The translations under genes and the position numbers were made by a program. From Icerya purchasi (lineage: Eukaryota > Arthropoda > Insecta > Hemiptera > Monophlebidae): a DNA stretch of 64,000 nt. The notes under the pieces are model-generated. The model worked only from the letters and a program-made list of their open reading frames with translations, made no database searches and was not told the DNA's origin. Shown here piece after piece: positions 42,879-62,978 of the stretch. The stretch spans positions 502,283,352 to 502,347,351 of the forward strand of contig CM077115.1 in assembly GCA_039619475.1 (NCBI GenBank). The letters run 5' to 3'. Numbering within the stretch: the first letter of the stretch is position 1; each line of letters begins with the position of its first letter.

Positions 42879-43646
42879 TTAGTCAGTTTGTATACTCGAT
42901 TTTTTTGCGAGAGAAAGCTTAGCTAACTCATCTGTAATCCAGGGTGACCTTTTATGGATTTTTCTAGTCTGCAATATACATTTAGACTGTTCTACACCGT
43001 TTTTTATTATAGTTATAAACTCTTCAAATTTCTCGTCAATTGTTAATTGCGAACTATATATTTTTTCACAGTCGATAGTCGCAAGATATTGTTTGAACTT
43101 AATTTTATCGAAACGATAAACACAGTTGGGTTTAATTGTCTTATGGTTGGAATAAAATTTAATTGATGCGTCTATAGCGCAATGATCGGAAAAATTTATT
43201 TTGAGAATTTTGTGTGTTAAATTTGATTTAAACAGGATATCATTAAAATCTCTAACAAAAAGATGATCTAAACACGATGAATAGCCGGAACGTTCTTGCA
43301 TAAAAGTCGGTGTATTAACAACGCTAGTGAAACCCCAGGAGTATAGTAAATTCAAATAATCGGAAGATCTTCTAACGTTATCCAAGAGATTTATGTTAAT
43401 ATCACCCGATAAGATTGAGGTTGATGAGGATAAATTTATTACGCTCTGTAAATCAGATAAAAAATCATCCTGATTATGATTACAGAAACGATAGATACCG
43501 AAAATAGTTACGTGAATATTGTCTTCGAAAAATATTTTCGCTCCGACTATATTGGCGGAGAGAATGGAAATGTCAATTTTTTGGAATAAGATGCTATTTT
43601 TAATGTACATTATAACACCGCCTGATCTTTTATTACTTCTGCATTG
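42879..43646 (-). pseudogene. LINE endonuclease, C-terminal part
   Basis: Apurinic-type endonuclease region of the LINE. NKRSGGVIMYIKNS is the third conserved block, LSGDININLL the Asp/Asn-containing block, SCLDHLFVRD the DHI-like block and INFSDHCAIDASIKF the final SDH block with catalytic Asp-His. The frame runs back to 43,655, but everything beyond 43,646 is palindromic element sequence. The N-terminal portion lies 19 kb away at 62,979-63,168. The stop at 42,879 results from the one-base contraction at about 42,900. Confidence 0.85.
43641..43646 (+). repeat. 6-bp target-site duplication, left copy
   Basis: gcattg directly before the element's first bases agtagtcatt. It is repeated at 62,979-62,984 and belongs to the LINE endonuclease codons. 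Confidence 0.9.
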
Positions 43647-43980
43647 AGTAGTCATTAAAAGCGGGGACTGGAAGGTCCGCTAATCCGAACCCCAATTCCT
43701 GTCCCGGAGTCGAAAATTCACCCCAGACCGGTAATCCGAACACGAAATTCACCCCAATTCATGTCCAGGTGTTCAAAATTCACCCAAGTTTCCCCCGATT
43801 CTTCCGAGTTTCCCCCGGACGGTTCCCGCTCGTTTCCGATAAACCGAACGTCCAAACTGTGTCCCGAGGTCAATAAACTGTCCAAAGAGTTATTCGGGGG
43901 CGCAAGTAACCCCAATTAGTGTCCAGGTGCTGAAAGTTCCCCCAAGTTCCCCAAATTTCTCCGAAATTCCCCTGTACGCG
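43647..43980 (+). repeat. Terminal GC-richer repeat block, left
   Basis: Short modules recur: ccccaattcctgtcccgg / ccccaattcatgtccagg / ccccaattagtgtccagg, and cccgctcgtttccgataaac twice. The composition is much richer in G+C than the rest of the arm. The mirror copy is at 62,645-62,978. Confidence 0.8.
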
Positions 43981-44700
43981 TCCCGCTCGTTTCCGATAAA
44001 CCGATCCGATTATTAATTAACATAAGTATATTAATTAATGTTCGAAAGTAACCCAAGTCTCCGCTGGCCCCTCCCGTCGCTCCGTAACCGCAATTTTTTT
44101 CAAAATTCAGGACCTAAGTAAGAAAATTCCAAAATTTAACCCCAATATATTATTTAAAGCGTAAATCTAACCTATAACTCCAGTTCACACCTCTCACATG
44201 TATATTTCGATCCCGCACACGCTCCGGTCGCCGTCGCGAAAGCGCACGCGCCGATCCCACGCATATTCCGATATACGCCGCGATATCACACACACACACA
44301 CACACGAACGCTCCGTCTCCAAAATTCCCTCGTATGCGTCATGCTCGTTTCTGATAAACAGAACCGATTATTAATTAGCATAAGTATATTAATTAATGTC
44401 CGAAAGTAACCCAAGTCTCCGCTGACCCCACCCGCCCGCTCCGTTACCGCAATTTTTTTCAAAATTCAGGTTATAAGTAAGAAAATTCCAAAATTTAACC
44501 CCAATATATTATTTAAAGCGTAAATCTAACCCAACACCTCCGTTACACCTCACACACGTATATTTCGTTCTCGCGCACGCTCCGGTCGCCGTCGCGAAAG
44601 CGCACGCGCCGATCCCCCACATATTCCGATGTCCACAGCGATATCCCGCGCACACACGCGCTCCGTTCCCGATACCGCGATTATTTCTTTAATATGTCAA
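43981..44700 (+). repeat. Subterminal tandem duplication, unit about 358 bp, left
   Basis: Two units start near 43,982 and 44,340. For example ctccggtcgccgtcgcgaaa is at 44,222 and 44,580, and caatttttttcaaaattcagg occurs in both. A short third piece (gcgaaagcgcacacgcagat) occurs at about 44,829. Mirrored at 61,925-62,644. Confidence 0.85.
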
Positions 44701-47164
44701 AGTCTAAGTATACATAATATAAAATTAGTCGAAGCATAATTTTTTATTTTCCTGATTCACCGATCTTACTACCATATTCCAAGATGCACGTCCCGATCCC
44801 ACACATATATCTAACAGCGTTATTCTCCGCGAAAGCGCACACGCAGATCCCCCGCACGTGTTGTCCGTTTATACTATCGCGATTACTTTTTTTTAATTAT
44901 TATTTTTTTCACATAATAACCCAATCACTGCTCTGTTGTCTAAACCTAACCGGTTATCCAAAACATTTATAAATTAACAAATCAATTATTTCTATAGTCT
45001 AAAATATCCTTAGTCTCCTTTACCCCTTCCATCCTCTTTTCCGATCGATTCCGTTGTTTTAATATCGAATATATCACATTCTATTTACTTTTACTACGAG
45101 CATTAAACCCCCGATCGACGTTCCCAACGCATCCGTCATCTCATATTGAGAGGTAATTATTTTTTTCTGTGACCGCTATGAATGCTCACCGTCCATTCCC
45201 GCACAACCATCTGCTGTCGTTAGTTCCCATACCGTTCATAATAACTTTTATGCAACTCCAAGTATTATGGAATTATTCCAATTATATATTTACTTCACTT
45301 CCGATCATTTCTTCTGACCGTTCATAATATTTTTATTTTTCTCCGATTCTAAAAATAAATCCTACAATGTCTTCAATGCGATGAATGCGCACACATCTTC
45401 TACAGTTAGTTTCCATATCGATCTTAATAATTTTTCGAGCCTAAATATTATAGAAATAGCCGAAGTATATTTTTTTCGTTTCTGATCATTTCTTCCGACC
45501 GTTCATAATATTTTTATTTTTCTCCGGTTCTAAAAATAAATCCTACAATGTCTTCAAAGCGATGAATGTGCACATACATGCCGTCGTTAGTTCCCATACC
45601 GATCATAATAACTTTTTTCAACTCCAAGTATTATGGAATTATTCTAACTATATTTTTTTTCGCTTCCGATCGTTTCTCCCGAACGTTCATAATTTTTTTC
45701 AAGACATATGTATGTATTCAAAAATGAAATCGAGTATAATTTTATTTAACACGGTTTCATAATTTACCTCTCCCACCCCTATCCATTCTACACAAATTAC
45801 AATTCTTTCATAATATATGTTCTAGACCCAGTCAATCAATCAACTCTCGCAGAAGTGTAGATGTTGCCTCCAACACCCATTTTACTATCAATTATTGTAT
45901 ATTATTGTTAGATTATTTTTCCAAAAAGTCTTTTGAAATTTTTTTCCGTTCGTACATTTTTTTTTTGATTTTATTTGCACGACATCCATTTCCATGCATT
46001 CACGTTTCGCTAGCAATTATAATATGTTTTATTTATTTTTCAACTCCTCCCAGACTTACATACACGCCATATTGTCACACTCACAGATAGGTTCCTTATT
46101 AATCGTGAACATTTTTTTTTTCTGTATTAGCCGCGGGAGCATATCACATCAGACCCACACATATACCACACACACACACAGGCATTATATTTAATTTTTA
46201 ATTATCGATCTTTAATTATTTTTACTGGTATTATTTTTCCGACACATTCACCCCGTCATACATACTTTACATCTTTTAACATTTTGATAGAGAAAATCTC
46301 AGGACACTAAATAATTTTTATCAACATCGTAACTAATTTTAATATTATACACATCTCAGTATAATTATTAAACGAAGGAACTATTATTTTCATTGACGAT
46401 ATTGTTGCTATAAACATTAATCGTCCTTTTCCAGGTATAGTCAACCTCTTCGTGTATTCGTCTCGTCTTTCTATCAACCTTTGACCGCTCAATACTCCCC
46501 CGCTATTTACCGTTATTCGTTAGAAGAATATTTTTTTAGACTCGTTCAAATACACACACATGCACATAAAAAAATAGACATCAACGTCATCGAACACAGA
46601 TCTCGACATTTCCAAGAAATTTAATCGCTGCTCCACAGTCTAAGATTTCCCCGCACGCCTCACCAGTCGTTTGTAACATTATTGAAGCGCCTGTCATGTA
46701 CCGTTATTTACGACCTTTTACAACATACAAATTCACGACATGTATACACCTTTTCTAGAAAGCATGGTGAAAATGGACAATCTCTCCCGATGAAAACCAG
46801 CTTGATTGATGTACCGTTATCTTATTCATTTTGCAGAAGATTAATTTAAGGCGTCCATGCACCTTTTCTACTAATAAATAAGCAAATGTAACCTTTAAAC
46901 CTTTCTACCTTTTTGCAATCAATTTACTGATTGTACATACTTTTTATATTTTTTTTCCACATACTCCTTGATCGTCACAACCACCACAAAAGCGCACCAT
47001 CCATTCGCACACACTCATCTGCTATCGTTAGATCTCATATCATTCATAATAATTTTTTCGATTCTATTAGTTTAAGAATATTTCATTTTTTTTTTTTGTT
47101 GTTTTTTTTTCTAACTCTAACATTTTTTTTTTTTCGAAATCTTTCGTATTATATTTTTTCTCCA
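44701..47164 (+). repeat. Left arm non-coding region with degenerate modules
   Basis: A module of roughly 185 bp recurs at about 45,200, 45,400 and 45,580 and in part at 47,020 (gtcgttagttcccatacc, cgttcataata, aagtattatggaattatt, tcatttcttccgaccg). No credible gene was found. The mirror image is 59,461-61,924. Confidence 0.65.
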
Positions 47165-47606
47165 ATATGTATGCTCACTATCGTAGCGTAAATGTGTGTC
47201 GCTTATAACCTTACATGCATGTTGCCATACCGTTGTATTAGATCGTGCGACAATGTTATTGAGTCTGCTGAAACAGGATCTTCCTCTTCATATCTTTTGT
47301 AGAAAACGGTTTACATGTACACACCTACACTCAAACACACATATCTTCATCTCCCCTTGACAGCGTCTTTCAAACACCTCTACAACCAAAGGAATGTGGT
47401 TTTTCTGGTACAACCCTCCCTTTTCAAAGGCATGCATTGAGGTAGATTGTTGAACGGATCTGATCGTGCAGGCAGTATTAGTTTTATGTTAAACGTGTTC
47501 ATTTTGTAGAATCTGTGTTCTTCACGCATTATTAAAAATTTACTGTAACGGTAAAAGTAATAATTTTCTATTTTTTAGTAGAAAGTTAAAAAAACAGTAA
47601 TCAAAC
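47165..47606 (+). promoter_or_regulatory. Upstream cassette of the 339-aa gene, left arm
   Basis: About 440 bp that closely resembles the cassette before the second gene (49,318-49,872): tatgctcactatcgtagcg, acatgcatgttgccatacc, cccttttcaaaggcatgc, gaacggatctgatcgtgcag and gtgttcttcacgc occur in the same order in both. It ends with ttttctattttttag about 30 bases before ATG, a plausible 3' splice site. Shared placement before both genes suggests promoter plus untranslated leader. Confidence 0.6.
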
Positions 47607-48626
47607 ATGAATAACAATACCGAATCGATTGATATTAAAGCCGACGAATTTATTCAGAATTCCTTTTCGAGTGATAGCGACTTGCATACGTATACTTCAC
47701 CTCCAACACCGCAAAATGATGATGGTTATACATCAGAACAATCAACATCCCTTGTATGTAAAATCGTTGGTCCTGTATTATTATCAGAACAAGTGGATAT
47801 AGCGGAATATTTTGTAGATATCAGCGTCCATATAGATTGTGATTATGAGTTTCGAGTAACTGAACTAGCAATGATTGATATGTCGGGAGGGAAATGTTTG
47901 CATACGCTGTATAAGCCAAGCAGAGCATGGCATGCATCAAAAATGCCACATTTACAATGTTCTTCAGTGAGTTATTACTTGAAGAACCCTTCATTATTTC
48001 CATGTCGTGAAGAAATATTCATCGCGCGCGATATATTCACGATATTGTCCCAAAAACCGAGGGCTCGCGTATATGTTTTAATAGTATATGCTAAACTTAC
48101 ACTAATGGAACTTAACAAAAAGTCTGAATTGTTGCGTAATTTAGACTACGAAATCGTTAATATGGATCAAGTCTTTCGATTATCTAGTATTGAGAATCTA
48201 CATGAAGAGTATTTTGGTATAAGCAATTTGATAACTTGTAAACACCATAATGAGAATGATAGTTTTCATTGTGCGGTGAAAAACGTTATGGTGATGAATG
48301 CATGGTACGATCATGTCATCCGTCCGCTGAAGCTTATGAATAATCTCAATATAAATGATTTAAGTCAGTTGTTCATTACAACCACCAAAGAAATGATAAT
48401 TACGTTATTTCCAAGTTGTGTTGGGGGCATTTATACATTTTTACCAGATAGACTAAAACAGGATGATACGATAAAATCACTTCTACCATGTTTTGAACAT
48501 GAGAATGATGAAGAATATTATTATGAAGAATATTATTTCGATGACGATATATTTCTGCATAGTACTCGAAATTGTATGAAAGTAAAAGATTGTATCGACT
48601 GCCAACGTACAATTCGCGCAGATTAA
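47607..48626 (+). CDS. 339-aa protein, possible degenerate exonuclease fold, left arm
   Basis: A conserved domain was not identified with certainty. Residues 1-20 are related to the N-terminus of the 282-aa product (MNNNTES, then FIQN). Residues 21-48 are Ser/Thr/Pro/Asp-rich. The core at 75-235 has EFRVTELAMIDMSGGKCLHT, which resembles the first acidic motif of DEDD exonucleases (Glu86, Asp91), a VYVLIVYAKL strand (155-164) and a C-x2-H...HCAVKNV stretch (211-227). An acidic tail ENDEEYYYEEYYFDDD (300-315) and clustered Cys (323, 329, 332) close the protein. No signal peptide or membrane segment was seen. The ATG is chosen because the shared N-terminal peptide starts there. Both copies are intact, which implies selection or recent conversion. 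The exonuclease-like reading is only an inference. Confidence 0.75.
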   Translation: MNNNTESIDIKADEFIQNSFSSDSDLHTYTSPPTPQNDDGYTSEQSTSLVCKIVGPVLLSEQVDIAEYFVDISVHIDCDYEFRVTELAMIDMSGGKCLHTLYKPSRAWHASKMPHLQCSSVSYYLKNPSLFPCREEIFIARDIFTILSQKPRARVYVLIVYAKLTLMELNKKSELLRNLDYEIVNMDQVFRLSSIENLHEEYFGISNLITCKHHNENDSFHCAVKNVMVMNAWYDHVIRPLKLMNNLNINDLSQLFITTTKEMIITLFPSCVGGIYTFLPDRLKQDDTIKSLLPCFEHENDEEYYYEEYYFDDDIFLHSTRNCMKVKDCIDCQRTIRAD

Positions 48627-49317
48627 AAATTCATTAATTCGATCGTTTTTAACAATTTTGTATATTTTTTCTGTATATTTTTGTGTGTATTTGTACATAT
48701 ATATTTTTTTCAGATCGTTCGTTTTTATGTTTTCTTTAAAATTTTTTAAATATATTTTTATACACATGTAAATACTGTTTTGTATATATTTTGTATATAT
48801 TTTTTCCCTCAATATCTATTCATTCTCATATTGTATATATTTTTGCTAATTATTTTTTCATCTTTTTCCGACCCTTTCCGATTTCTCTTTATTTAATTTA
48901 TTTAGCGATCTATCCTTCTCTCCCCCTCTTAACTTAAAGTACTGGTAATGACGAAATTTTCAAAAATCTGAACCAGTCGAGTATAATGTATATATAATTA
49001 TTTAATTTTCGAATATATTTCCACATAATTTGTTCATATCTGTTTAGATTAAAAAATTAGATTTTTGTCTGTAATACACCATTTTTTTATTTTTTTTTTG
49101 TGTGTAATAAGCGAATTTAACTGTTATACTTTTTCACGTACATCACGTATTTCCGCAGCTGTGAGAGTTTTCATCTGTTTGTAAGATACAACCTCTGACT
49201 CTAAATGTTCTCTAAATATTTTTTTTTTGAGCCTAAATATTATAGAAATAGCCGAAGTATATTTTTTTCGTTTCTGACCATTTCTTCCGACCGTTCATAA
49301 TTTTGTATTTTTTCTAC

Positions 49318-49872
49318 AATATGTATGCTCACTATCGTAGCGTAAACGTGCGTCGCTCATAACCTTACATGCATGTTGCCATACCGTTGTATTAGATCGT
49401 GAGACAATGTTATAGAGTCTGTTGAAACAGGTTCTTCCCTTTCATATCTTTTGTAGAAACAGACTCACATGCACACACCTACACACCTACACACACATAC
49501 ACACACATATAACCCAAAGAACACCTGCAAACTTCGTTCAGACACACCTGCATCCAACTTTCACCAAAGGAATGTGGTTTTTTCTGATGCAACCCTCCCT
49601 TTTCAAAGGCATGCTTCGAGCTCGAATGTCGAACGGATCTGATCGTGCAGGCAGTATTAGTGTTATGTTAAACGTGTGGAATTTGTTGAAGCTGTGTTCT
49701 TCACGCGTTATTAAAATATTCTCAAGAACGATAAAGTCTGTAATTTCCTACGTCTTTTCTCTTTTTCGTTCGCTCTTTATTTTCTGTCTTTTTTCTCTCT
49801 TATTGCACGTTATTCTTTTCGCTCTTATTTTCTCTCATTTTTTTAGTATAAATATTACAATAATAATCGAAT
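49318..49872 (+). promoter_or_regulatory. Upstream cassette of the 282-aa gene, left arm
   Basis: Counterpart of 47,165-47,606 with the same ordered words, plus a longer pyrimidine-rich stretch (49,750-49,845) ending in tttttttag, then tataaatatta and the ATG. The pyrimidine tract plus AG suggests a 3' splice site; the tataaata could instead be a TATA box. A 152-codon frame across the cassette (49,422-49,880) is not kept in the first cassette and is not called a gene. Confidence 0.6.
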
Positions 49873-50721
49873 ATGAATAACAATACCGAATCGAATGTCG
49901 ATAATGTCGCGGATTTCATTCAAAATTTTTTTGTAAATGATAATGATAATGCAATGTTTCCGGACGATTTTCCAAATATACATATGCCGCCACCACCACC
50001 ACAAGCAGAAGAAACATCATTACAAGGGCCTTCGCTACATTCATTCTCAGATTTCATTCCATTGGCTACATCAACACCTTTAGCATCACCGGTAATGTCA
50101 CAAGATTTGCAAACTCCGTCGTTAACACAAGTACCTTTGGTACATGATGAAAAAGAATATAGCACAACAATGTTGGAATTACCCAAAGAAATATTTAACC
50201 GAAAAGCAGTCGTCTATGTTAAAGAACCTAACGATCCAGAAAATAAAAATAGTTTCATGTATGCGGTTTTAGCAAAATTTACATCAAAACCGTCATCGAT
50301 GTGGCAGTACAATATTCTACAGAAAGTATACGATTTCAGCTTTATTCACTTACCGATCCAATCGCTGGCTGATATTGAAACGTTTGAAAGAATAAACGCT
50401 GTATCAATCAACTTATACAAGCTGATAGAAACCGACTATACAGATCAAAGTACATTCAACTACAAAATAAAAGTCGTGTACGCCTTCCGAAAAAATCACA
50501 GTTTGTTAAATCATAAACATCACACAAACATATTATATTGGGGATCTAATGGAAATTATCAATTCGCATGGATAAAAAAATTCAGTCGATTGTTGCGGAT
50601 CCAGTCGCCGAAAGCGAAATTTGTATGCTGGTCATGTCTCGATCCCATGAATACCGATTACGAACATAATAATACTCACAGATGTGACGCAGTCAGTTGG
50701 CGTAATATGCACTATATGTAA
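49873..50721 (+). CDS. 282-aa Maverick polymerase-associated N-domain protein, left arm
   Basis: Residues 1-20 are related to the 339-aa product. Residues 30-95 are a low-complexity Pro/Ser/Thr linker. From 115 to 272 it follows the region that precedes the DNA polymerase B domain in arthropod Maverick-type proteins: NSFMYAVLAKF (126-136), the YDFSFIHLPIQSLADIETFE stretch (153-172), INAVSINLYKL (174-184), a HHTNILYW (216-223) and YQFAWIKKFSRLLR (229-242) block, and a zinc-finger-like CWSCLDPMN...H...H.C (Cys252, Cys255, His265, His269, Cys271). The family normally continues into a polymerase; here the protein stops 11 residues after the last Cys, with a poly-A signal (aataaa) a few bases beyond the stop. 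The role may be binding of the element's ends or of the replication machinery, which is inference. Identical copies occur in both arms. Confidence 0.85.
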   Translation: MNNNTESNVDNVADFIQNFFVNDNDNAMFPDDFPNIHMPPPPPQAEETSLQGPSLHSFSDFIPLATSTPLASPVMSQDLQTPSLTQVPLVHDEKEYSTTMLELPKEIFNRKAVVYVKEPNDPENKNSFMYAVLAKFTSKPSSMWQYNILQKVYDFSFIHLPIQSLADIETFERINAVSINLYKLIETDYTDQSTFNYKIKVVYAFRKNHSLLNHKHHTNILYWGSNGNYQFAWIKKFSRLLRIQSPKAKFVCWSCLDPMNTDYEHNNTHRCDAVSWRNMHYM

Positions 50722-51560
50722 TTAAATAAAGACGTATTTTTCGTATTCATAGATGTATGTTTATTTTTCAAAAAATCTTTTTACATTGTTTCATACAAAT
50801 TAATGTAATCTATATAATATAATAAATATTTTCATATGTATACATTTTTGTTTTTATTTTCCATAAACTTAAAATTCCAATTTTACTATTGTTGTTAATA
50901 TATATCAAACTCCAGTTTGTATTAAATCCTCTCGCTCTTTATGTTGAACAGACGAATCAATATTATTTAACTGTTCAGTTAAGTATGCAGAGTCGTTTTA
51001 TCTTGCCTAACTTTAAAGATGTATGATAGATTCTTTTTTCATTTGACAGTGTAAACGTTTTCTTCTTTTAAAATTTTCTTATGCTTTATCACTATTACAA
51101 CATTTTTCATCATTTTCTAACTAATTGTAAACATTTTTCCACTATTTTGTAACATGTTCTTATGTTTTAGGACTTTTTGCCCTATTTTTTTCACCAATTT
51201 ATACTATTTCGAAGCATTTCATATGACTGAACGCTACTTAAGAAGTTTTTCGATAATTATCACCATTCCTCGCAATATTCATATGTTTTAACGCTTTTTA
51301 CACTATTTTTCACAAATTCATGATATTTCACTTCATTTCTAATGTTTGAACGACTCATATGCAGTTTTTCGACAATTTTTCACCGTTCATCACTATATTT
51401 TTTTATGTTGTATCACCTTTTATGATGTCTTCATCAAATTTTACCTTCATTCAACAATATTTTCGTTATTGTACCCTTTCGAACTAATGTTTTACCCTAA
51501 AAGCGAGTGTATATCTAATTTGTTATAATTAAGAAAGAATGTAATGTATATTACAAATTT
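50722..51560 (+). repeat. Left arm 3' region with degenerate repeats
   Basis: Downstream of the 282-aa gene. From 51,050 the words catatgttt, tttttcgacaatttttcacc and actatttttcac recur in an irregular pattern of about 110-130 bp. No gene was seen. Confidence 0.5.
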
Positions 51561-52560
51561 CCTTTCCTGGGAGTATGATTGTGTGTGCAGAATAATAAAC
51601 TCTGGTAAGAAGCAGACTGTATCCACCATCAAGCAGGGTGTGTAAAGCGTGGTAATTAACTCTGGCATTGCACACATTGCAAGGTAGTTATGATATGTTT
51701 GAGCATAAATTAGTTGTTGGATATCATTCATGTTAGTCATTAAATGTTCGCACTGAGAGATGCAAGGGGGGCGTCATCATATGAACCATTACGATTTTTA
51801 TAATTATAATATACACTAAGCATGTATGTATTACAACGACCACATCAACTCTGTTAAGGACGGTAATGTTTGGAGGTAGATAGTGAACCGTTACATTAGA
51901 AGAGGAACATGGGTACATACATGGAAACATCATTAGCGATATTACATCACATGTATGTCATCAAATTTAACTAAAATATTGCGTCCATAGTAAAAAATGC
52001 GAGGATTTTTCCTAAGAGGTTAAATTTTATGTCTAAGATGGCGAATATAATAAAATTGATGCGATTTTAGCTGAAGATGGGGTATTTTACACTAAAATCG
52101 TTGTTTTACACCTAAAGTGAGATTATTTGGGGAGTTAAACGGTCTTTTTTCATATAAAATTTTATGTTTTTTCTAAATGTGGCTATTTTTTGTCCTAAAT
52201 GGAGTAATTTCTGTGTGAATGGCACTTCTTAGACTGGCATATATACTTCTTGATGTGATATTCCATTCATTGTGAAGCTATGCTTTGAAAGGGTTTGTGT
52301 CTGGTTGTGGGAAGTTTCCAAACTTTTCTGATGCATCGATTATAGTATAATAGTTGTTGTGTGTTAGTGAGTTGATGGTGTTTGGATGGGAATAATAAAT
52401 AGGGGTAAGAGGTGGAGTGTACCACATCAAGCAAGGAGAGTACTGTTTGATAATTAACTCTATCATTTAAACACATTGCAAGTCAGTTATAATATGTTAA
52501 GTCAAAATTAGTTGTTGTATCTCGTTCAGGATTTTACATTAAACGATCACACTGAGAGAC
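51561..52560 (+). repeat. Two direct copies of a 190-bp module, left arm
   Basis: 51,600-51,790 and 52,400-52,590 share ggtaaga, atcaagca, ggtaattaactct/gataattaactct, cacattgcaag, aattagttgttg, cactgagaga and gtcatcat in the same order, about 798 bp apart. The stretch between them (51,960-52,220) has several taaaattttatg-like words. The mirror copies are at about 54,036-55,026. Confidence 0.7.
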
Positions 52561-52967
52561 GTGATGGACTCGTCATCATCAAGATCCATGCGATCATTAC
52601 ATTATTTTTCACTAATTTGTAATCACCATTTTTTTTTTTATGTTTTGAACGACTCTTATAATGTTTTTTGATAATTTTCATGGTACAAGGTTCATAATGT
52701 AAAGTAATTTTAATTATTTCAACAGTCTTTACACACAAATAAAGCAATATATCTTAAGCACACTCAACATAATACAAATTTTTACAAACAGAAGTAAACA
52801 ATGGATTTACTTAGAAATTTTAATAAAACTTAAGAATCATATTATATATGAAATTGCTCGTTTTTTCAATCAATGATCCAAACTAGCAGGTTTAGAATTA
52901 TATCAGACCTCTAGTAAAAACCCCAAATTATTTAATGTGTATATCTTTGCTACTTTTTACCTCATAT

Positions 52968-53640
52968 ATGTGAATATACATAGATATATATGAATATATG
53001 TAGATATATATGTATATATGTAGATATATATGTATATATGTAGATATATATGTACATATGTAGATATATATGCATATATGTAGATATATATATGTATGTA
53101 GATATTTATGGATATATGTATATATGTAGATATATATGAATATATGTAGATATATATGTATATATGTAGATATATATGTATATATGTACATATATATATG
53201 TATATATGTAGATATATATGCATATATGTAGATATATATATGTATGTAGATATTTATGGATATATGTATATATGTAGATATATATGAATATATGTAGATA
53301 TATATGTATATATGTAGATATATATGTATATATGTAGATATATATGTATATATGTAGATATGTATGTATATATGTAGATATATATGTATATATGTAGATA
53401 TATATGTATATATGTAGATATATATGTATATATGTAGATATATATGTATATATGTAGATATATATGTGTATATGTAGATATATATGTATATATGTAGATA
53501 TATATGTATATATGTAGATATATATGTATATATGTAGATATATATGTATATATGTAGATATATATGCATATATGTAGATATATATATGTATGTAGATATT
53601 TATGGATATATGTATATATCTGGATACATATGAATGTGTA
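52968..53640 (+). repeat. Central AT satellite, 20-bp unit
   Basis: About 33 tandem units of the type tatatatgtatatatgtaga. A variant block with gtatgtagatatttatgg occurs three times (about 53,093, 53,243 and 53,590), so there is higher-order structure. The sequence runs in one direction through the palindrome centre, so this spacer is not itself an inverted repeat at large scale. Long Tyr/Ile/His open frames on the - strand are by-products of the repeat. Confidence 0.95.
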
Positions 53641-54065
53641 GATACGTACATTCACACATATAAGGTAAAAAGTAGGAAAGATATACACATTAAATAATTT
53701 GGGGTTTTTACTCGAGGTCTGATATAATTCTAAACCTGCTAGTTTGGATCATTGATTGAAAAAACAAGCAATTTCATATATAATATGATTCTTAAGTTTT
53801 ATTAAAATTTCTAAGTAAATCCATTGTTTACTTCTGTTTGTAAAAATTTGTATTATGTTGAGTGTGCTTAAGATATATTGCTTTATTTGTGTGTAAAGAC
53901 TGTTGAAATAATTAAAATTACTTTACATTATGAACCTTGTACCATGAAAATTATCAAAAAACATTATAAGAGTCGTTCAAAACATAAAAAAAAAAAATGG
54001 TGATTACAAATTAGTGAAAAATAATGTAATGATCGCATGGATCTTGATGATGACGAGTCCATCAC

Positions 54066-55904
54066 GTCTCTCAGTGTGATCGTTTAATGTAAAATCCTGA
54101 ACGAGATACAACAACTAATTTTGACTTAACATATTATAACTGACTTGCAATGTGTTTAAATGATAGAGTTAATTATCAAACAGTACTCTCCTTGCTTGAT
54201 GTGGTACACTCCACCTCTTACCCCTATTTATTATTCCCATCCAAACACCATCAACTCACTAACACACAACAACTATTATACTATAATCGATGCATCAGAA
54301 AAGTTTGGAAACTTCCCACAACCAGACACAAACCCTTTCAAAGCATAGCTTCACAATGAATGGAATATCACATCAAGAAGTATATATGCCAGTCTAAGAA
54401 GTGCCATTCACACAGAAATTACTCCATTTAGGACAAAAAATAGCCACATTTAGAAAAAACATAAAATTTTATATGAAAAAAGACCGTTTAACTCCCCAAA
54501 TAATCTCACTTTAGGTGTAAAACAACGATTTTAGTGTAAAATACCCCATCTTCAGCTAAAATCGCATCAATTTTATTATATTCGCCATCTTAGACATAAA
54601 ATTTAACCTCTTAGGAAAAATCCTCGCATTTTTTACTATGGACGCAATATTTTAGTTAAATTTGATGACATACATGTGATGTAATATCGCTAATGATGTT
54701 TCCATGTATGTACCCATGTTCCTCTTCTAATGTAACGGTTCACTATCTACCTCCAAACATTACCGTCCTTAACAGAGTTGATGTGGTCGTTGTAATACAT
54801 ACATGCTTAGTGTATATTATAATTATAAAAATCGTAATGGTTCATATGATGACGCCCCCCTTGCATCTCTCAGTGCGAACATTTAATGACTAACATGAAT
54901 GATATCCAACAACTAATTTATGCTCAAACATATCATAACTACCTTGCAATGTGTGCAATGCCAGAGTTAATTACCACGCTTTACACACCCTGCTTGATGG
55001 TGGATACAGTCTGCTTCTTACCAGAGTTTATTATTCTGCACACACAATCATACTCCCAGGAAAGGAAATTTGTAATATACATTACATTCTTTCTTAATTA
55101 TAACAAATTAGATATACACTCGCTTTTAGGGTAAAACATTAGTTCGAAAGGGTACAATAACGAAAATATTGTTGAATGAAGGTAAAATTTGATGAAGACA
55201 TCATAAAAGGTGATACAACATAAAAAAATATAGTGATGAACGGTGAAAAATTGTCGAAAAACTGCATATGAGTCGTTCAAACATTAGAAATGAAGTGAAA
55301 TATCATGAATTTGTGAAAAATAGTGTAAAAAGCGTTAAAACATATGAATATTGCGAGGAATGGTGATAATTATCGAAAAACTTCTTAAGTAGCGTTCAGT
55401 CATATGAAATGCTTCGAAATAGTATAAATTGGTGAAAAAAATAGGGCAAAAAGTCCTAAAACATAAGAACATGTTACAAAATAGTGGAAAAATGTTTACA
55501 ATTAGTTAGAAAATGATGAAAAATGTTGTAATAGTGATAAAGCATAAGAAAATTTTAAAAGAAGAAAACGTTTACACTGTCAAATGAAAAAAGAATCTAT
55601 CATACATCTTTAAAGTTAGGCAAGATAAAAAGACTCTGCATACTTAACTGAACAGTTAAATAATATTGATTCGTCTGTTCAACATAAAGAGCGAGAGGAT
55701 TTAATACAAACTGGAGTTTGATATATATTAACAACAATAGTAAAATTGGAATTTTAAGTTTATGGAAAATAAAAACAAAAATGTATACATATGAAAATAT
55801 TTATTATATTATATAGATTACATTAATTTGTATGAAACAATGTAAAAAGATTTTTTGAAAAATAAACATACATCTATGAATACGAAAAATACGTCTTTAT
55901 TTAA
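54066..55904 (-). repeat. Right arm 3' region and modules
   Basis: Mirror of 50,722-52,560: the same two 190-bp modules and the degenerate repeats next to the 282-aa gene. Short open frames here are duplicates of those in the left arm without motifs. Confidence 0.65.
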
Positions 55905-56753
55905 TTACATATAGTGCATATTACGCCAACTGACTGCGTCACATCTGTGAGTATTATTATGTTCGTAATCGGTATTCATGGGATCGAGACATGACCAGCA
56001 TACAAATTTCGCTTTCGGCGACTGGATCCGCAACAATCGACTGAATTTTTTTATCCATGCGAATTGATAATTTCCATTAGATCCCCAATATAATATGTTT
56101 GTGTGATGTTTATGATTTAACAAACTGTGATTTTTTCGGAAGGCGTACACGACTTTTATTTTGTAGTTGAATGTACTTTGATCTGTATAGTCGGTTTCTA
56201 TCAGCTTGTATAAGTTGATTGATACAGCGTTTATTCTTTCAAACGTTTCAATATCAGCCAGCGATTGGATCGGTAAGTGAATAAAGCTGAAATCGTATAC
56301 TTTCTGTAGAATATTGTACTGCCACATCGATGACGGTTTTGATGTAAATTTTGCTAAAACCGCATACATGAAACTATTTTTATTTTCTGGATCGTTAGGT
56401 TCTTTAACATAGACGACTGCTTTTCGGTTAAATATTTCTTTGGGTAATTCCAACATTGTTGTGCTATATTCTTTTTCATCATGTACCAAAGGTACTTGTG
56501 TTAACGACGGAGTTTGCAAATCTTGTGACATTACCGGTGATGCTAAAGGTGTTGATGTAGCCAATGGAATGAAATCTGAGAATGAATGTAGCGAAGGCCC
56601 TTGTAATGATGTTTCTTCTGCTTGTGGTGGTGGTGGCGGCATATGTATATTTGGAAAATCGTCCGGAAACATTGCATTATCATTATCATTTACAAAAAAA
56701 TTTTGAATGAAATCCGCGACATTATCGACATTCGATTCGGTATTGTTATTCAT
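55905..56753 (-). CDS. 282-aa Maverick polymerase-associated N-domain protein, right arm
   Basis: Translation is identical to 49,873-50,721, including the AWIKKFSRLL block and the Cys/His cluster at residues 252-271. It reads towards the palindrome centre, so the two copies converge. Convergence across a palindrome means that read-through RNA from either arm can fold on itself or pair with the other. Confidence 0.85.
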   Translation of the reverse strand: MNNNTESNVDNVADFIQNFFVNDNDNAMFPDDFPNIHMPPPPPQAEETSLQGPSLHSFSDFIPLATSTPLASPVMSQDLQTPSLTQVPLVHDEKEYSTTMLELPKEIFNRKAVVYVKEPNDPENKNSFMYAVLAKFTSKPSSMWQYNILQKVYDFSFIHLPIQSLADIETFERINAVSINLYKLIETDYTDQSTFNYKIKVVYAFRKNHSLLNHKHHTNILYWGSNGNYQFAWIKKFSRLLRIQSPKAKFVCWSCLDPMNTDYEHNNTHRCDAVSWRNMHYM

Positions 56754-57308
56754 ATTCGATTATTATTGTAATATTTATACTAAAAAAATGAGAGAAAATA
56801 AGAGCGAAAAGAATAACGTGCAATAAGAGAGAAAAAAGACAGAAAATAAAGAGCGAACGAAAAAGAGAAAAGACGTAGGAAATTACAGACTTTATCGTTC
56901 TTGAGAATATTTTAATAACGCGTGAAGAACACAGCTTCAACAAATTCCACACGTTTAACATAACACTAATACTGCCTGCACGATCAGATCCGTTCGACAT
57001 TCGAGCTCGAAGCATGCCTTTGAAAAGGGAGGGTTGCATCAGAAAAAACCACATTCCTTTGGTGAAAGTTGGATGCAGGTGTGTCTGAACGAAGTTTGCA
57101 GGTGTTCTTTGGGTTATATGTGTGTGTATGTGTGTGTAGGTGTGTAGGTGTGTGCATGTGAGTCTGTTTCTACAAAAGATATGAAAGGGAAGAACCTGTT
57201 TCAACAGACTCTATAACATTGTCTCACGATCTAATACAACGGTATGGCAACATGCATGTAAGGTTATGAGCGACGCACGTTTACGCTACGATAGTGAGCA
57301 TACATATT
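56754..57308 (-). promoter_or_regulatory. Upstream cassette of the 282-aa gene, right arm
   Basis: Inverted copy of 49,318-49,872 with the same pyrimidine tract and AG before the ATG. Confidence 0.6.
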
Positions 57309-57998
57309 GTAGAAAAAATACAAAATTATGAACGGTCGGAAGAAATGGTCAGAAACGAAAAAAATATACTTCGGCTATTTCTATAATATTTAGGCTAAAA
57401 AAAAAAATATTTAGAGAACATTTAGAGTCAGAGGTTGTATCTTACAAACAGATGAAAACTCTCACAGCTGCGGAAATACGTGATGTACGTGAAAAAGTAT
57501 AACAGTTAAATTCGCTTATTACACACAAAAAAAAATAAAAAAATGGTGTATTACAGACAAAAATCTAATTTTTTAATCTAAACAGATATGAACAAATTAT
57601 GTGGAAATATATTCGAAAATTAAATAATTATATATACATTATACTCGACTGGTTCAGATTTTTGAAAATTTCGTCATTACCAGTACTTTAAGTTAAGAGG
57701 GGGAGAGAAGGATAGATCGCTAAATAAATTAAATAAAGAGAAATCGGAAAGGGTCGGAAAAAGATGAAAAAATAATTAGCAAAAATATATACAATATGAG
57801 AATGAATAGATATTGAGGGAAAAAATATATACAAAATATATACAAAACAGTATTTACATGTGTATAAAAATATATTTAAAAAATTTTAAAGAAAACATAA
57901 AAACGAACGATCTGAAAAAAATATATATGTACAAATACACACAAAAATATACAGAAAAAATATACAAAATTGTTAAAAACGATCGAATTAATGAATTT

Positions 57999-59018
57999 TT
58001 AATCTGCGCGAATTGTACGTTGGCAGTCGATACAATCTTTTACTTTCATACAATTTCGAGTACTATGCAGAAATATATCGTCATCGAAATAATATTCTTC
58101 ATAATAATATTCTTCATCATTCTCATGTTCAAAACATGGTAGAAGTGATTTTATCGTATCATCCTGTTTTAGTCTATCTGGTAAAAATGTATAAATGCCC
58201 CCAACACAACTTGGAAATAACGTAATTATCATTTCTTTGGTGGTTGTAATGAACAACTGACTTAAATCATTTATATTGAGATTATTCATAAGCTTCAGCG
58301 GACGGATGACATGATCGTACCATGCATTCATCACCATAACGTTTTTCACCGCACAATGAAAACTATCATTCTCATTATGGTGTTTACAAGTTATCAAATT
58401 GCTTATACCAAAATACTCTTCATGTAGATTCTCAATACTAGATAATCGAAAGACTTGATCCATATTAACGATTTCGTAGTCTAAATTACGCAACAATTCA
58501 GACTTTTTGTTAAGTTCCATTAGTGTAAGTTTAGCATATACTATTAAAACATATACGCGAGCCCTCGGTTTTTGGGACAATATCGTGAATATATCGCGCG
58601 CGATGAATATTTCTTCACGACATGGAAATAATGAAGGGTTCTTCAAGTAATAACTCACTGAAGAACATTGTAAATGTGGCATTTTTGATGCATGCCATGC
58701 TCTGCTTGGCTTATACAGCGTATGCAAACATTTCCCTCCCGACATATCAATCATTGCTAGTTCAGTTACTCGAAACTCATAATCACAATCTATATGGACG
58801 CTGATATCTACAAAATATTCCGCTATATCCACTTGTTCTGATAATAATACAGGACCAACGATTTTACATACAAGGGATGTTGATTGTTCTGATGTATAAC
58901 CATCATCATTTTGCGGTGTTGGAGGTGAAGTATACGTATGCAAGTCGCTATCACTCGAAAAGGAATTCTGAATAAATTCGTCGGCTTTAATATCAATCGA
59001 TTCGGTATTGTTATTCAT
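57999..59018 (-). CDS. 339-aa protein, possible degenerate exonuclease fold, right arm
   Basis: Translation is identical to 47,607-48,626, with the same Glu86/Asp91 block, CKHH...HCAVKNV stretch and acidic tail. A one-base homopolymer difference between the arms lies outside the coding sequence, so neither copy is broken. Confidence 0.75.
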   Translation of the reverse strand: MNNNTESIDIKADEFIQNSFSSDSDLHTYTSPPTPQNDDGYTSEQSTSLVCKIVGPVLLSEQVDIAEYFVDISVHIDCDYEFRVTELAMIDMSGGKCLHTLYKPSRAWHASKMPHLQCSSVSYYLKNPSLFPCREEIFIARDIFTILSQKPRARVYVLIVYAKLTLMELNKKSELLRNLDYEIVNMDQVFRLSSIENLHEEYFGISNLITCKHHNENDSFHCAVKNVMVMNAWYDHVIRPLKLMNNLNINDLSQLFITTTKEMIITLFPSCVGGIYTFLPDRLKQDDTIKSLLPCFEHENDEEYYYEEYYFDDDIFLHSTRNCMKVKDCIDCQRTIRAD

Positions 59019-59460
59019 GTTTGATTACTGTTTTTTTAACTTTCTACTAAAAAATAGAAAATTATTACTTTTACCGTTACAGTAAATTTTTAATAATGCG
59101 TGAAGAACACAGATTCTACAAAATGAACACGTTTAACATAAAACTAATACTGCCTGCACGATCAGATCCGTTCAACAATCTACCTCAATGCATGCCTTTG
59201 AAAAGGGAGGGTTGTACCAGAAAAACCACATTCCTTTGGTTGTAGAGGTGTTTGAAAGACGCTGTCAAGGGGAGATGAAGATATGTGTGTTTGAGTGTAG
59301 GTGTGTACATGTAAACCGTTTTCTACAAAAGATATGAAGAGGAAGATCCTGTTTCAGCAGACTCAATAACATTGTCGCACGATCTAATACAACGGTATGG
59401 CAACATGCATGTAAGGTTATAAGCGACACACATTTACGCTACGATAGTGAGCATACATAT
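59019..59460 (-). promoter_or_regulatory. Upstream cassette of the 339-aa gene, right arm
   Basis: Inverted copy of 47,165-47,606. Confidence 0.6.
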
Positions 59461-61924
59461 TGGAGAAAAAATATAATACGAAAGATTTCGAAAAAAAAAA
59501 AATGTTAGAGTTAGAAAAAAAAACAACAAAAAAAAAAAATGAAATATTCTTAAACTAATAGAATCGAAAAAATTATTATGAATGATATGAGATCTAACGA
59601 TAGCAGATGAGTGTGTGCGAATGGATGGTGCGCTTTTGTGGTGGTTGTGACGATCAAGGAGTATGTGGAAAAAAAATATAAAAAGTATGTACAATCAGTA
59701 AATTGATTGCAAAAAGGTAGAAAGGTTTAAAGGTTACATTTGCTTATTTATTAGTAGAAAAGGTGCATGGACGCCTTAAATTAATCTTCTGCAAAATGAA
59801 TAAGATAACGGTACATCAATCAAGCTGGTTTTCATCGGGAGAGATTGTCCATTTTCACCATGCTTTCTAGAAAAGGTGTATACATGTCGTGAATTTGTAT
59901 GTTGTAAAAGGTCGTAAATAACGGTACATGACAGGCGCTTCAATAATGTTACAAACGACTGGTGAGGCGTGCGGGGAAATCTTAGACTGTGGAGCAGCGA
60001 TTAAATTTCTTGGAAATGTCGAGATCTGTGTTCGATGACGTTGATGTCTATTTTTTTATGTGCATGTGTGTGTATTTGAACGAGTCTAAAAAAATATTCT
60101 TCTAACGAATAACGGTAAATAGCGGGGGAGTATTGAGCGGTCAAAGGTTGATAGAAAGACGAGACGAATACACGAAGAGGTTGACTATACCTGGAAAAGG
60201 ACGATTAATGTTTATAGCAACAATATCGTCAATGAAAATAATAGTTCCTTCGTTTAATAATTATACTGAGATGTGTATAATATTAAAATTAGTTACGATG
60301 TTGATAAAAATTATTTAGTGTCCTGAGATTTTCTCTATCAAAATGTTAAAAGATGTAAAGTATGTATGACGGGGTGAATGTGTCGGAAAAATAATACCAG
60401 TAAAAATAATTAAAGATCGATAATTAAAAATTAAATATAATGCCTGTGTGTGTGTGTGGTATATGTGTGGGTCTGATGTGATATGCTCCCGCGGCTAATA
60501 CAGAAAAAAAAAATGTTCACGATTAATAAGGAACCTATCTGTGAGTGTGACAATATGGCGTGTATGTAAGTCTGGGAGGAGTTGAAAAATAAATAAAACA
60601 TATTATAATTGCTAGCGAAACGTGAATGCATGGAAATGGATGTCGTGCAAATAAAATCAAAAAAAAAATGTACGAACGGAAAAAAATTTCAAAAGACTTT
60701 TTGGAAAAATAATCTAACAATAATATACAATAATTGATAGTAAAATGGGTGTTGGAGGCAACATCTACACTTCTGCGAGAGTTGATTGATTGACTGGGTC
60801 TAGAACATATATTATGAAAGAATTGTAATTTGTGTAGAATGGATAGGGGTGGGAGAGGTAAATTATGAAACCGTGTTAAATAAAATTATACTCGATTTCA
60901 TTTTTGAATACATACATATGTCTTGAAAAAAATTATGAACGTTCGGGAGAAACGATCGGAAGCGAAAAAAAATATAGTTAGAATAATTCCATAATACTTG
61001 GAGTTGAAAAAAGTTATTATGATCGGTATGGGAACTAACGACGGCATGTATGTGCACATTCATCGCTTTGAAGACATTGTAGGATTTATTTTTAGAACCG
61101 GAGAAAAATAAAAATATTATGAACGGTCGGAAGAAATGATCAGAAACGAAAAAAATATACTTCGGCTATTTCTATAATATTTAGGCTCGAAAAATTATTA
61201 AGATCGATATGGAAACTAACTGTAGAAGATGTGTGCGCATTCATCGCATTGAAGACATTGTAGGATTTATTTTTAGAATCGGAGAAAAATAAAAATATTA
61301 TGAACGGTCAGAAGAAATGATCGGAAGTGAAGTAAATATATAATTGGAATAATTCCATAATACTTGGAGTTGCATAAAAGTTATTATGAACGGTATGGGA
61401 ACTAACGACAGCAGATGGTTGTGCGGGAATGGACGGTGAGCATTCATAGCGGTCACAGAAAAAAATAATTACCTCTCAATATGAGATGACGGATGCGTTG
61501 GGAACGTCGATCGGGGGTTTAATGCTCGTAGTAAAAGTAAATAGAATGTGATATATTCGATATTAAAACAACGGAATCGATCGGAAAAGAGGATGGAAGG
61601 GGTAAAGGAGACTAAGGATATTTTAGACTATAGAAATAATTGATTTGTTAATTTATAAATGTTTTGGATAACCGGTTAGGTTTAGACAACAGAGCAGTGA
61701 TTGGGTTATTATGTGAAAAAAATAATAATTAAAAAAAAGTAATCGCGATAGTATAAACGGACAACACGTGCGGGGGATCTGCGTGTGCGCTTTCGCGGAG
61801 AATAACGCTGTTAGATATATGTGTGGGATCGGGACGTGCATCTTGGAATATGGTAGTAAGATCGGTGAATCAGGAAAATAAAAAATTATGCTTCGACTAA
61901 TTTTATATTATGTATACTTAGACT
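59461..61924 (-). repeat. Right arm non-coding region with degenerate modules
   Basis: Mirror of 44,701-47,164, with the same modules in inverted orientation. Confidence 0.65.
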
Positions 61925-62978
61925 TTGACATATTAAAGAAATAATCGCGGTATCGGGAACGGAGCGCGTGTGTGCGCGGGATATCGCTGTGGACATCGGA
62001 ATATGTGGGGGATCGGCGCGTGCGCTTTCGCGACGGCGACCGGAGCGTGCGCGAGAACGAAATATACGTGTGTGAGGTGTAACGGAGGTGTTGGGTTAGA
62101 TTTACGCTTTAAATAATATATTGGGGTTAAATTTTGGAATTTTCTTACTTATAACCTGAATTTTGAAAAAAATTGCGGTAACGGAGCGGGCGGGTGGGGT
62201 CAGCGGAGACTTGGGTTACTTTCGGGCATTAATTAATATACTTATGCTAATTAATAATCGGTTCTGTTTATCAGAAACGAGCATGACGCATACGAGGGAA
62301 TTTTGGAGACGGAGCGTTCGTGTGTGTGTGTGTGTGTGATATCGCGGCGTATATCGGAATATGCGTGGGATCGGCGCGTGCGCTTTCGCGACGGCGACCG
62401 GAGCGTGTGCGGGATCGAAATATACATGTGAGAGGTGTGAACTGGAGTTATAGGTTAGATTTACGCTTTAAATAATATATTGGGGTTAAATTTTGGAATT
62501 TTCTTACTTAGGTCCTGAATTTTGAAAAAAATTGCGGTTACGGAGCGACGGGAGGGGCCAGCGGAGACTTGGGTTACTTTCGAACATTAATTAATATACT
62601 TATGTTAATTAATAATCGGATCGGTTTATCGGAAACGAGCGGGACGCGTACAGGGGAATTTCGGAGAAATTTGGGGAACTTGGGGGAACTTTCAGCACCT
62701 GGACACTAATTGGGGTTACTTGCGCCCCCGAATAACTCTTTGGACAGTTTATTGACCTCGGGACACAGTTTGGACGTTCGGTTTATCGGAAACGAGCGGG
62801 AACCGTCCGGGGGAAACTCGGAAGAATCGGGGGAAACTTGGGTGAATTTTGAACACCTGGACATGAATTGGGGTGAATTTCGTGTTCGGATTACCGGTCT
62901 GGGGTGAATTTTCGACTCCGGGACAGGAATTGGGGTTCGGATTAGCGGACCTTCCAGTCCCCGCTTTTAATGACTACT
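61925..62978 (-). repeat. Terminal and subterminal repeat block, right
   Basis: Inverted copy of 43,647-44,700 with the same two 358-bp units and terminal modules. Confidence 0.9.

What the first reader, a model, noticed from the sequence alone, without database searches (positions are those of the whole stretch)
43647..62978. A 19.3-kb near-perfect palindrome that behaves as one mobile element
Arms of about 9.33 kb are inverted copies up to the very termini, and the whole unit is flanked by one 6-bp duplication inside a LINE. Ordinary DNA transposons have short inverted ends; here inverted identity covers about 96% of the element. This suggests an inverted dimer, for example from replication through a hairpin-like end, or from a replication intermediate integrated as one piece.
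Basis: partly seen in the sequence, partly recalled or inferred. Interest (0 to 1): 0.95.

Follow-up and report, generated by a model that had tools for sequence, protein, structure and literature searches.

The report
Fold-back palindromic Polinton transposon family
An insect genome (probably that of the cottony cushion scale) carries a family of virus-like jumping elements, Polintons, in which many copies are near-perfect mirror palindromes inserted as single units, a form that likely arises when a copying DNA strand folds back and copies one end of the element over the other.

Summary
The palindrome is real: 19,332 bp, arms of 9,316 bp with 8 differences, a 0.7-kb satellite centre, and one 6-bp target duplication (GCATTG). 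Joining the flanks restores a 292-codon LINE frame. It is not a one-off. In the same 1.1-Gb genome, 17 of 17 paired copies examined (11 by both halves, 6 by spot check) are palindromes, each with its own perfect 6-bp duplication. In the 11 copies compared by halves each arm's nearest relative is its own partner: 0.02-0.36% apart, against 2% or more to any other copy. One relative encodes Polinton integrase, packaging ATPase, protease and capsid. The window's two proteins are homologous to Polinton proteins. Ordinary-looking Polintons coexist with inverted pairs of the polymerase end and of the integrase end. Four palindromes whose ancestral order can be read show arm, collinear loop, inverted arm, with 2-8 bp of microhomology at the jump. 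Most likely mechanism: fold-back (snap-back) copying during replication, re-homogenisation of the arms, then integrase-type insertion as one piece. The formation junction of the window copy itself is not resolved, and chromosomal arm-to-arm conversion is not excluded as a helper.

The parts
43641..43646 (.). left copy of the 6-bp target-site duplication GCATTG
   Evidence: second copy at 62979-62984
62979..62984 (.). right copy of the 6-bp target-site duplication GCATTG
43647..52962 (+). left arm of the palindrome (9,316 bp)
   Evidence: 8 differences to the right arm
53663..62978 (-). right arm of the palindrome, inverted copy of the left arm
52963..53662 (.). asymmetric centre (loop), mostly a 20-bp satellite ATATATATGTATATATGTAG at 52964-53619
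   Evidence: as single-stranded DNA folds 10 sd better than 20 shuffles; a like satellite (20- or 22-bp unit) lies in the inner part of at least one half of 9 of 9 other W- and T2-type copies fetched, and not in C2:18.4M
43647..43666 (+). terminal 20-mer, 5'-AG end
62959..62978 (-). terminal 20-mer, inverted
43647..45697 (+). outer part of the arm shared with the other subfamily (T2, copy C1:431.7M: 91% over 2.05 kb) and, for the outer 0.65-1.06 kb, with the gene-bearing Polinton C2:18.4M (91-93%)
47607..48626 (+). ORF1, 339 aa; homologue of a Polinton protein (L027:8610-9527)
   Evidence: longest ORF in 300 shuffles 189 aa; BLASTP 5e-24, 24% over 246 aa
57999..59018 (-). ORF1, second copy in right arm
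49873..50721 (+). ORF2, 282 aa; homologue of the N-terminal region of the Polinton polymerase-like protein
   Evidence: BLASTP 7e-11, 29% over 168 aa
55905..56753 (-). ORF2, second copy in right arm
47149..47537 (+). leader cassette upstream of ORF1, duplicated upstream of ORF2 at 49303-49716 (82%)
49303..49716 (+). leader cassette upstream of ORF2
41036..43646 (-). target: LINE frames, reverse transcriptase (628 aa) and endonuclease-like, interrupted by the element
   Evidence: RVT_1 1.7e-34; Exo_endo_phos 0.0013, below cut-off
62985..63095 (-). target: the part of the same LINE frame on the far side of the insertion

Best explanation
The window holds one 19,332-bp palindromic, non-autonomous copy of a Polinton/Maverick-derived family, inserted as a single unit with a 6-bp target duplication, and its palindromic form likely arose when a replicating strand folded back on itself and copied one end of the element over the other. 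Shown: the palindrome, its single target duplication and the restored LINE frame; 16 more palindromic copies, each with its own duplication; ordinary-looking Polintons and inverted pairs of either end side by side in the genome; four palindromes whose centre reads arm, loop collinear with the Polinton gene order, then inverted arm, with 2, 2, 3 and 8 bp of microhomology at the jump. Inferred: during protein-primed, strand-displacement replication a free 3' end snaps back at a short inverted match and copies outward to the terminus. This gives a linear molecule with the same end twice, hence a replication origin and integrase site at both ends. Such a molecule can be replicated and integrated by enzymes supplied in trans. 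The displaced strand of a palindrome is a hairpin (stem = arms, loop = centre), so mismatches between the arms would be repaired or copied out in each cycle, which would explain why the two arms of each copy match each other far better than any other copy.
For: Unit insertion: TSD and restored LINE frame; 10 of 10 copies fetched by halves with perfect, distinct 6-bp TSDs and inverted arms; 6 of 6 spot-checked copies likewise, inner 569-800 bp 100% identical between arms. Arms regenerated per copy: own arm nearest in 22 of 22, 0.02-0.36% substitutions within versus at least 2.06% between copies. Polinton family: relative C2:18.4M has rve integrase, Pox_A32-type ATPase, PLA2-like, Peptidase_C5 and DJR capsid (E 2e-72) and shares the window's outer 0.65-1.06 kb; window ORF1 and ORF2 are homologous to Polinton ORFs. 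Both ends used: among 72 scored polymerase and 119 scored integrase hits, 31 groups with one of each on one strand, 12 inverted polymerase pairs reading P+..P-, 8 inverted integrase pairs reading I-..I+. Arms confirmed at sequence level, over the part fetched, in four polymerase-end pairs (C2:168.0M 3 mismatches in 3,349; C1:540.6M 0 in 2,479 and C1:284.1M 1 in 1,341; C1:427.2M 0 in about 2,056). Fold-back signature: loops of 549, about 1,120, about 146 and 6,440 bp, collinear with the Polinton order, microhomology 8, 2, 3, 2 bp; 2 bp or more is expected at 19% of random sites, so 4 of 4 is about 0.0013. The same signature marks fold-back inverted duplications in human DNA (PMC3907307, passages seen).
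Against: The window copy's own formation junction cannot be read, because no single-copy precursor of its inner arm was found. Three of the four readable junctions have only 2-3 bp of microhomology, and the reference order comes from C2:18.4M, itself a palindromic copy. Two copies (C1:426.6M, C1:230.5M) have clustered arm differences (28 and 7 substitutions), so homogenisation is patchy and some exchange between copies occurs. One opposite-strand polymerase neighbour pair reads P-..P+. The polymerase label rests on three ordered motifs (motif meaning recalled), with no polymerase profile or PDB hit. Protein priming, hairpin intermediates and trans-supply are inferred.
Confidence: 0.62

Rival explanations
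1. Palindromes formed once per lineage and were then inherited; the arms of each inserted copy are kept identical mainly by arm-to-arm gene conversion on the chromosome, as in long sex-chromosome palindromes (recalled).
For: Patchy clusters of arm differences in C1:426.6M and C1:230.5M; 4 of the window's 8 arm differences lie in the innermost 335 bp (p about 1e-4), as if conversion fades towards the loop.
Against: Arm identity is 99.64-99.98% in all 11 copies compared, whatever their site. Two copies keep a LINE insertion in one arm only while the outer arm has 1 difference in 5.25 and 5.85 kb, so conversion has not erased it. It does not explain how palindromes of either end arose.
Confidence: 0.2
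2. Palindromes arise by template switching or recombination between two element molecules in opposite orientation (intermolecular end exchange) rather than by a strand folding back on itself.
For: The same products are expected; the clustered end differences in two copies suggest exchange between copies; some centres are nested or complex (L054, L057).
Against: Loops are collinear with one arm in the four readable cases and short (10-549 bp) in four palindromes, as expected for an intrastrand fold; in 9 of 11 copies the compared arms differ by at most 4 substitutions, with no trace of a second parent.
Confidence: 0.14
3. Assembly artefact: a foldback read or collapsed repeat made the palindrome.
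For: Palindromes are hard to assemble; no reads were available here.
Against: Single 6-bp TSD with restored LINE frame; 17 of 17 sites with different perfect TSDs; arms differ by single bases; the published assembly that matches in size used HiFi reads at mean depth 31 (PMC11183206, passages).
Confidence: 0.02
4. Chromosomal inverted duplication of an inserted element after insertion, not mobile as a unit.
For: Fold-back inverted duplications occur in chromosomes (PMC3907307, passages).
Against: The inversion stops exactly at both element termini and is bracketed by one TSD in 17 of 17 copies.
Confidence: 0.02

Closest known systems
Polinton/Maverick (polintovirus) elements
   Same: 6-bp target duplications and 5'-AG ends (as family marks: recalled), 15-20 kb size (PMC4028283, PMC4642659, passages), and in the relative C2:18.4M integrase, ATPase, protease and double-jelly-roll capsid
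   Different: The one ordinary copy measured has a 1.65-kb TIR, one polymerase and one integrase. Here the inverted repeats take up to 96% of the element, and in the window copy no polymerase, integrase or capsid domain was found.
Polinton-like viruses and PgVV with long terminal inverted repeats (PMC4642659, passages seen)
   Same: linear genomes of about 20 kb with long TIRs
   Different: there the TIR-bearing genomes keep capsid and ATPase genes and count as complete; here one end has replaced the other
Fold-back inverted duplications of human chromosomes (PMC3907307, passages seen)
   Same: unduplicated spacer between the arms and 2-8 bp of inverted microhomology at the junction
   Different: those are one-off chromosomal rearrangements; these are mobile and multiply
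Symmetric (end-duplicated) adenovirus genomes and palindromic Streptomyces linear replicons (recalled; no paper seen)
   Same: protein-capped linear replicons in which one end replaces the other and still replicates
   Different: known from cultures or damage; not, to my knowledge, as integrated, transposing families
Teratorn (PMC6431247, passages seen)
   Different: herpesvirus/piggyBac type, 18-bp TIRs, other genes

Membership tests
Polinton/Maverick (family level) | RVE-type integrase | tested here: met
   PF00665 E 2.6e-12 in C2:18.4M, which shares the window's outer 0.65-1.06 kb at 91-93%; not found in the window copy
[quoted passage not shown]
   open frames of up to 1,290 aa; motifs DANNLYG, KLLNNSSFGK, YTDTDS in order in one (motif meaning recalled); no polymerase profile or PDB hit; window ORF2 matches only its N-terminal region
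Polinton/Maverick (family level) | double-jelly-roll capsid, packaging ATPase, cysteine protease | tested here: met
   PF21738 2.3e-72, PF04665 5.9e-11, PF00770 9.9e-5 in C2:18.4M
Polinton/Maverick (family level) | 6-bp target-site duplication (recalled as a family mark) | tested here: met
   17 of 17 palindromic copies and 1 ordinary copy
Polinton/Maverick | the window copy itself encodes polymerase and integrase (autonomous) | tested here: not met
   66 stop-free pieces of at least 50 aa from the arm: four chance-level Pfam matches (best E 0.02), none of a Polinton gene; it is filed as a non-autonomous derivative
Polinton/Maverick | terminal inverted repeats of hundreds of bp to a few kb (recalled) | tested here: not met
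   window arms 9,316 bp, 96.4% of the element; one ordinary relative has 1.65 kb
Foldback (FB-type) transposons | long TIRs made of short tandem repeats, with 9-bp target duplication (recalled) | tested here: not met
   TSD is 6 bp; arms are gene-bearing, not made of short tandem repeats throughout
Fold-back inverted duplication (mechanism) | single-copy spacer collinear with one arm and inverted microhomology at the junction | tested here: met
   4 of 4 junctions with readable ancestral order; not testable for the window copy; two other centres are nested and were not resolved (L054, L057)

The most novel reading that the evidence does not exclude
Palindromic Polintons are a replicon class of their own: fold-back events keep creating end-duplicated genomes from either end of an ordinary Polinton. 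Once palindromic, the element replicates through a giant hairpin in which one arm templates the other at every transposition, so the two arms are reset to identity at each insertion, like the LTRs of a retroelement, and serve as a clock of insertion age. Non-autonomous lineages such as the window's live entirely in this palindromic state.
Probability: 0.45. Interest if true: 0.9.

Novelty: new variant of a known kind. Interest (0 to 1): 0.82.

Why it matters
How Polintons replicate has, to my knowledge, been inferred mostly from their genes. A genome with many end-duplicated copies is a natural record of replication accidents: it points to a linear intermediate with free ends, suggests that either end alone suffices for replication and integration, and gives readable fold-back junctions. 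It also offers a large natural set of long palindromes in one animal genome for studying palindrome stability, and possibly an LTR-like clock for dating Polinton insertions. It would make the question of hairpin versus panhandle replication of protein-primed elements directly testable.

Tried and rejected
Protein searches with ORF1 and ORF2 in the large protein collection found nothing (with a widened length range, ORF2 only). No relatives in viral contigs or, for ORF2, prokaryote contigs. No PHROGs hit and no PDB hit beyond chance level. AlphaFold models of both ORFs without an alignment were useless (pLDDT 35 and 31), so no fold search was made. A first reading of the C2:18.4M junction as a 12-bp microhomology (my note) was wrong: most of it is arm identity, and comparison with an unbroken gene leaves 2 bp. 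Likewise a 5-bp overlap at C2:253.5M shrank to 2 bp strict. Purifying selection on the palindromes' ORFs is not established: ORF2 pN/pS 0.25-0.49 in three pairs on few changes; the T2 ORF gives 0.27-2.95 or undefined, no consistent signal. For two of three ordinary-layout copies no terminal repeat was found in the 3.1-4.0 kb flanks fetched, so their non-palindromic form rests on gene counts alone. Print: nine searches listed no paper whose title or shown abstract start is about palindromic Polintons; the library holds only openly licensed papers.
Full report
OBSERVATION. The 19,332-bp unit 43647-62978 aligns end to end with its own reverse complement. Outside the centre the arms (43647-52962 and 53663-62978) differ at 8 places, 4 of them in the innermost 335 bp. 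The centre is mostly a 20-bp satellite that folds far better than shuffled sequence (z -10 against 20 shuffles). GCATTG flanks both ends; removing the element and one GCATTG joins the flanks into a 292-codon frame, next to a reverse-transcriptase frame (RVT_1), so the target is a LINE. The element therefore inserted once, as a whole. Each arm carries ORF1 (339 aa) and ORF2 (282 aa); in 300 dinucleotide shuffles of the arm the longest ORF was 189 aa. Alone, neither had a significant relative in the libraries searched.

THE GENOME. The window lies in a 1,103,370,081-bp assembly of 41 contigs, two of them 602 and 497 Mb. This is very close to the published Icerya purchasi assembly (1,103.38 Mb, two pseudochromosomes, HiFi/hifiasm, mean HiFi depth 31; PMC11183206, abstract and passages seen). 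The species name is an inference from size and chromosome number.

COPIES. The first 120 bp of the element gave 40 scored places of 916 candidates: 17 inverted pairs (window included) and 6 unpaired ends. Halves of 10 further pairs were fetched. In 10 of 10 the two ends are inverted repeats from the very termini, each copy with a different, perfect 6-bp duplication (CAATAA, GTAGTT, TGATAA, CGAGTC, TAATAG, TTCATG, TAAGAC, TACGGT, GTGAAA, AGTGTC). The inverted alignment is 8.1-9.7 kb long in 7 of the 10 (some satellite included; 9.7 kb is the length fetched); 5.25 and 5.85 kb in two copies where one arm carries a LINE insertion (RVT_1 and endonuclease; 3,811 bp identical between the two; their middles were not fetched whole); and 6.26 kb in C2:18.4M. 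The other 6 pairs, 17 to 34 kb apart, were checked at the ends and at 800 bp about 5 kb inside: 6 of 6 palindromic there, six more perfect duplications (GACGCA, TATTGA, CGCGTA, GAGAGG, GACCTA, GATTTA). That is 17 of 17. The sample is biased to ends most like the window's. Not examined: the 6 unpaired ends, and 5 further inverted pairs found with the C2:18.4M end (40 full-length places of 920 candidates).

ARMS ARE RESET COPY BY COPY. In the alignment of up to 7.8 kb of both arms of 11 copies, the nearest relative of each arm is its own partner in 22 of 22 cases. Counting substitutions only, partners differ by 0.02-0.09% in ten copies and 0.36% in C1:426.6M, while the closest other copy differs by 2.06% or more. 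In C1:426.6M and C1:230.5M the differences are clustered (outermost 330 bp; also 6.1-7.3 kb in the former), with alleles partly shared with other copies and partly private, so homogenisation works in tracts and ends are sometimes exchanged.

WHAT FAMILY. C2:18.4M shares the window's outer 0.65-1.06 kb at 91-93%. It encodes an RVE integrase with a weak chromodomain match, a Pox_A32-type ATPase, a PLA2-like protein, an adenovirus-type protease and a double-jelly-roll capsid. Integrase, ATPase, PLA2-like protein and protease lie inside the 6.26-kb arm and so occur twice; the capsid and a polymerase-like frame lie in the 6.44-kb middle, the latter cut at the arm boundary. Window ORF1 matches one of its proteins (5e-24, 24% over 246 aa); window ORF2 matches the N-terminal region of a related polymerase-like protein, L054 (7e-11). 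A second palindromic subfamily (T2, seven of the copies fetched by halves) shares 2 kb of end with the window (91%, tested on C1:431.7M) and carries a 322-332-aa ORF, 48% identical to another protein of C2:18.4M. The window element is thus a non-autonomous Polinton derivative. The polymerase label rests on three motifs in order (motif meaning recalled); profile libraries showed only an endonuclease-VII-like patch and one chance-level match, and the PDB nothing.

ORDINARY-LOOKING AND PALINDROMIC POLINTONS SIDE BY SIDE. The polymerase piece and the integrase of C2:18.4M were searched in the genome (72 scored of 2,204 candidates; 119 of 1,681). Grouped within 18 kb they form 126 groups. 31 have one of each on the same strand in the order of C2:18.4M, the ordinary layout. 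12 inverted polymerase pairs read P+..P- (10 alone, 1 with an extra copy, 1 with an integrase in the middle). 8 inverted integrase pairs read I-..I+ (5 alone, 2 in one tandem, and C2:18.4M). 64 are lone integrases and 6 lone polymerases. 6 are other mixtures, one with a polymerase pair reading P-..P+ 13 kb apart, probably two elements; inside the tandem two integrases also face I+..I-. As only the best candidates are scored, lone hits and ordinary layouts are not proof that no partner exists. Eight of the ten clean polymerase pairs have identical bit scores in both members. Arm identity was read at sequence level, over the part fetched, in four polymerase-end pairs (3 mismatches in 3,349, 0 in 2,479, 1 in 1,341, 0 in about 2,056) and near the centre of two integrase-end pairs (99.0% and 98.0%, loop included in the latter). 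One ordinary copy, C2:6063896-6080590, has terminal repeats of 1.65 kb (97.8%) and the duplication CAAATC on both sides, with one polymerase and one integrase hit.

HOW THEY FORM. C2:18.4M is collinear with the ordinary layout from its integrase end to its polymerase gene (integrase-polymerase spacing 9.1 kb, against 4.8-16.5 kb, mostly 7.8-10 kb, in the 31 groups), so it serves as reference although it is itself a palindrome. Four junctions could be read against it or against an unbroken relative of the polymerase gene. In each, one arm runs on collinearly into the spacer, and the other arm begins at a jump to the opposite strand. Spacers are 549 bp (C1:284.1M), about 1,120 bp (C2:253.5M), about 146 bp (C2:107.1M) and 6,440 bp (C2:18.4M); strict microhomologies are 8 (the self-complementary TGCATGCA, present at both parental sites), 2, 3 and 2 bp. 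Random inverted junctions in the same sequence have 2 bp or more in 19% and 8 bp or more in 0.02% of cases. A further palindrome, C1:427.2M, has a 10-nt loop; C1:540.6M (L057, 197-bp spacer) and C2:168.0M (L054) have nested, unresolved centres. Breakpoints and the duplicated end differ between palindromes, so they most likely formed several times independently. The same signature (unduplicated spacer, 2-8 bp inverted microhomology) is the published mark of fold-back inverted duplications (PMC3907307, passages seen).

MECHANISM, with status. Shown: inverted pairs of either end, collinear loops with short microhomology, single-unit insertion, per-copy arm identity. Inferred from the known biology of Polintons (protein-primed polymerase and integrase; PMC4028283 and PMC6431247, passages seen): a strand freed during strand-displacement replication snaps back at a short inverted match and copies its own arm outward, making a linear genome with the same end twice; both ends serve priming and integration, so the palindrome can spread using enzymes from intact relatives; hairpin stems let one arm correct the other in each cycle. 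The window lineage would be an old product of this route that now multiplies as a palindrome. Chromosomal arm-to-arm conversion may help and is not excluded. An exchange between two molecules could give similar products but explains the short collinear loops less simply.

NOVELTY. Long terminal repeats are known in Polinton-like viruses (PMC4642659, passages), and end-duplicated genomes are known, from memory, in adenoviruses and Streptomyces linear replicons. A transposon population in which palindromes of either end coexist with ordinary Polintons and themselves transpose did not appear in the listings of the nine searches named under Tried and rejected.

Noticed in passing
window 47149-47661 and 49303-49927: ORF1 and ORF2 share a duplicated leader (about 400 bp, 82%) and their first roughly 25 residues (MNNNTES...), then differ, as if one expression cassette had been placed in front of two different Polinton gene fragments.
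   Followed up: partly
L023:5710-9929 and L026:1-3702: LINE insertion (RVT_1, endonuclease) in one arm of C2:45.5M and of C2:497.0M, 100% identical over the 3,811 bp compared: a very recently active LINE in two of these palindromes.
   Followed up: partly
G000:C2:466225461-466253667: Two integrase-end inverted pairs with identical scores lie side by side, 2.9 kb between the starts of the neighbouring integrases.
   Followed up: no
G000:C1 115.15-115.25 Mb; C2 443.60-443.78 Mb; C1 567.49-567.85 Mb: Clusters of several Polinton polymerase and integrase hits within 0.1-0.4 Mb.
   Followed up: no
L054:10-3306: The polymerase-like ORF contains an endonuclease-VII-like patch around residues 341-383.
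   Followed up: no
window 44001-47000 and 60001-63000: Strong GC skew of the outer arm (about -0.35 on the left, +0.31 to +0.37 on the right), mirror-imaged like the arms.
   Followed up: no
window 51571-51789 and 52369-52589: Two diverged direct repeats (74%) near the inner end of the arm, with broken reading frames on the minus strand.
   Followed up: no
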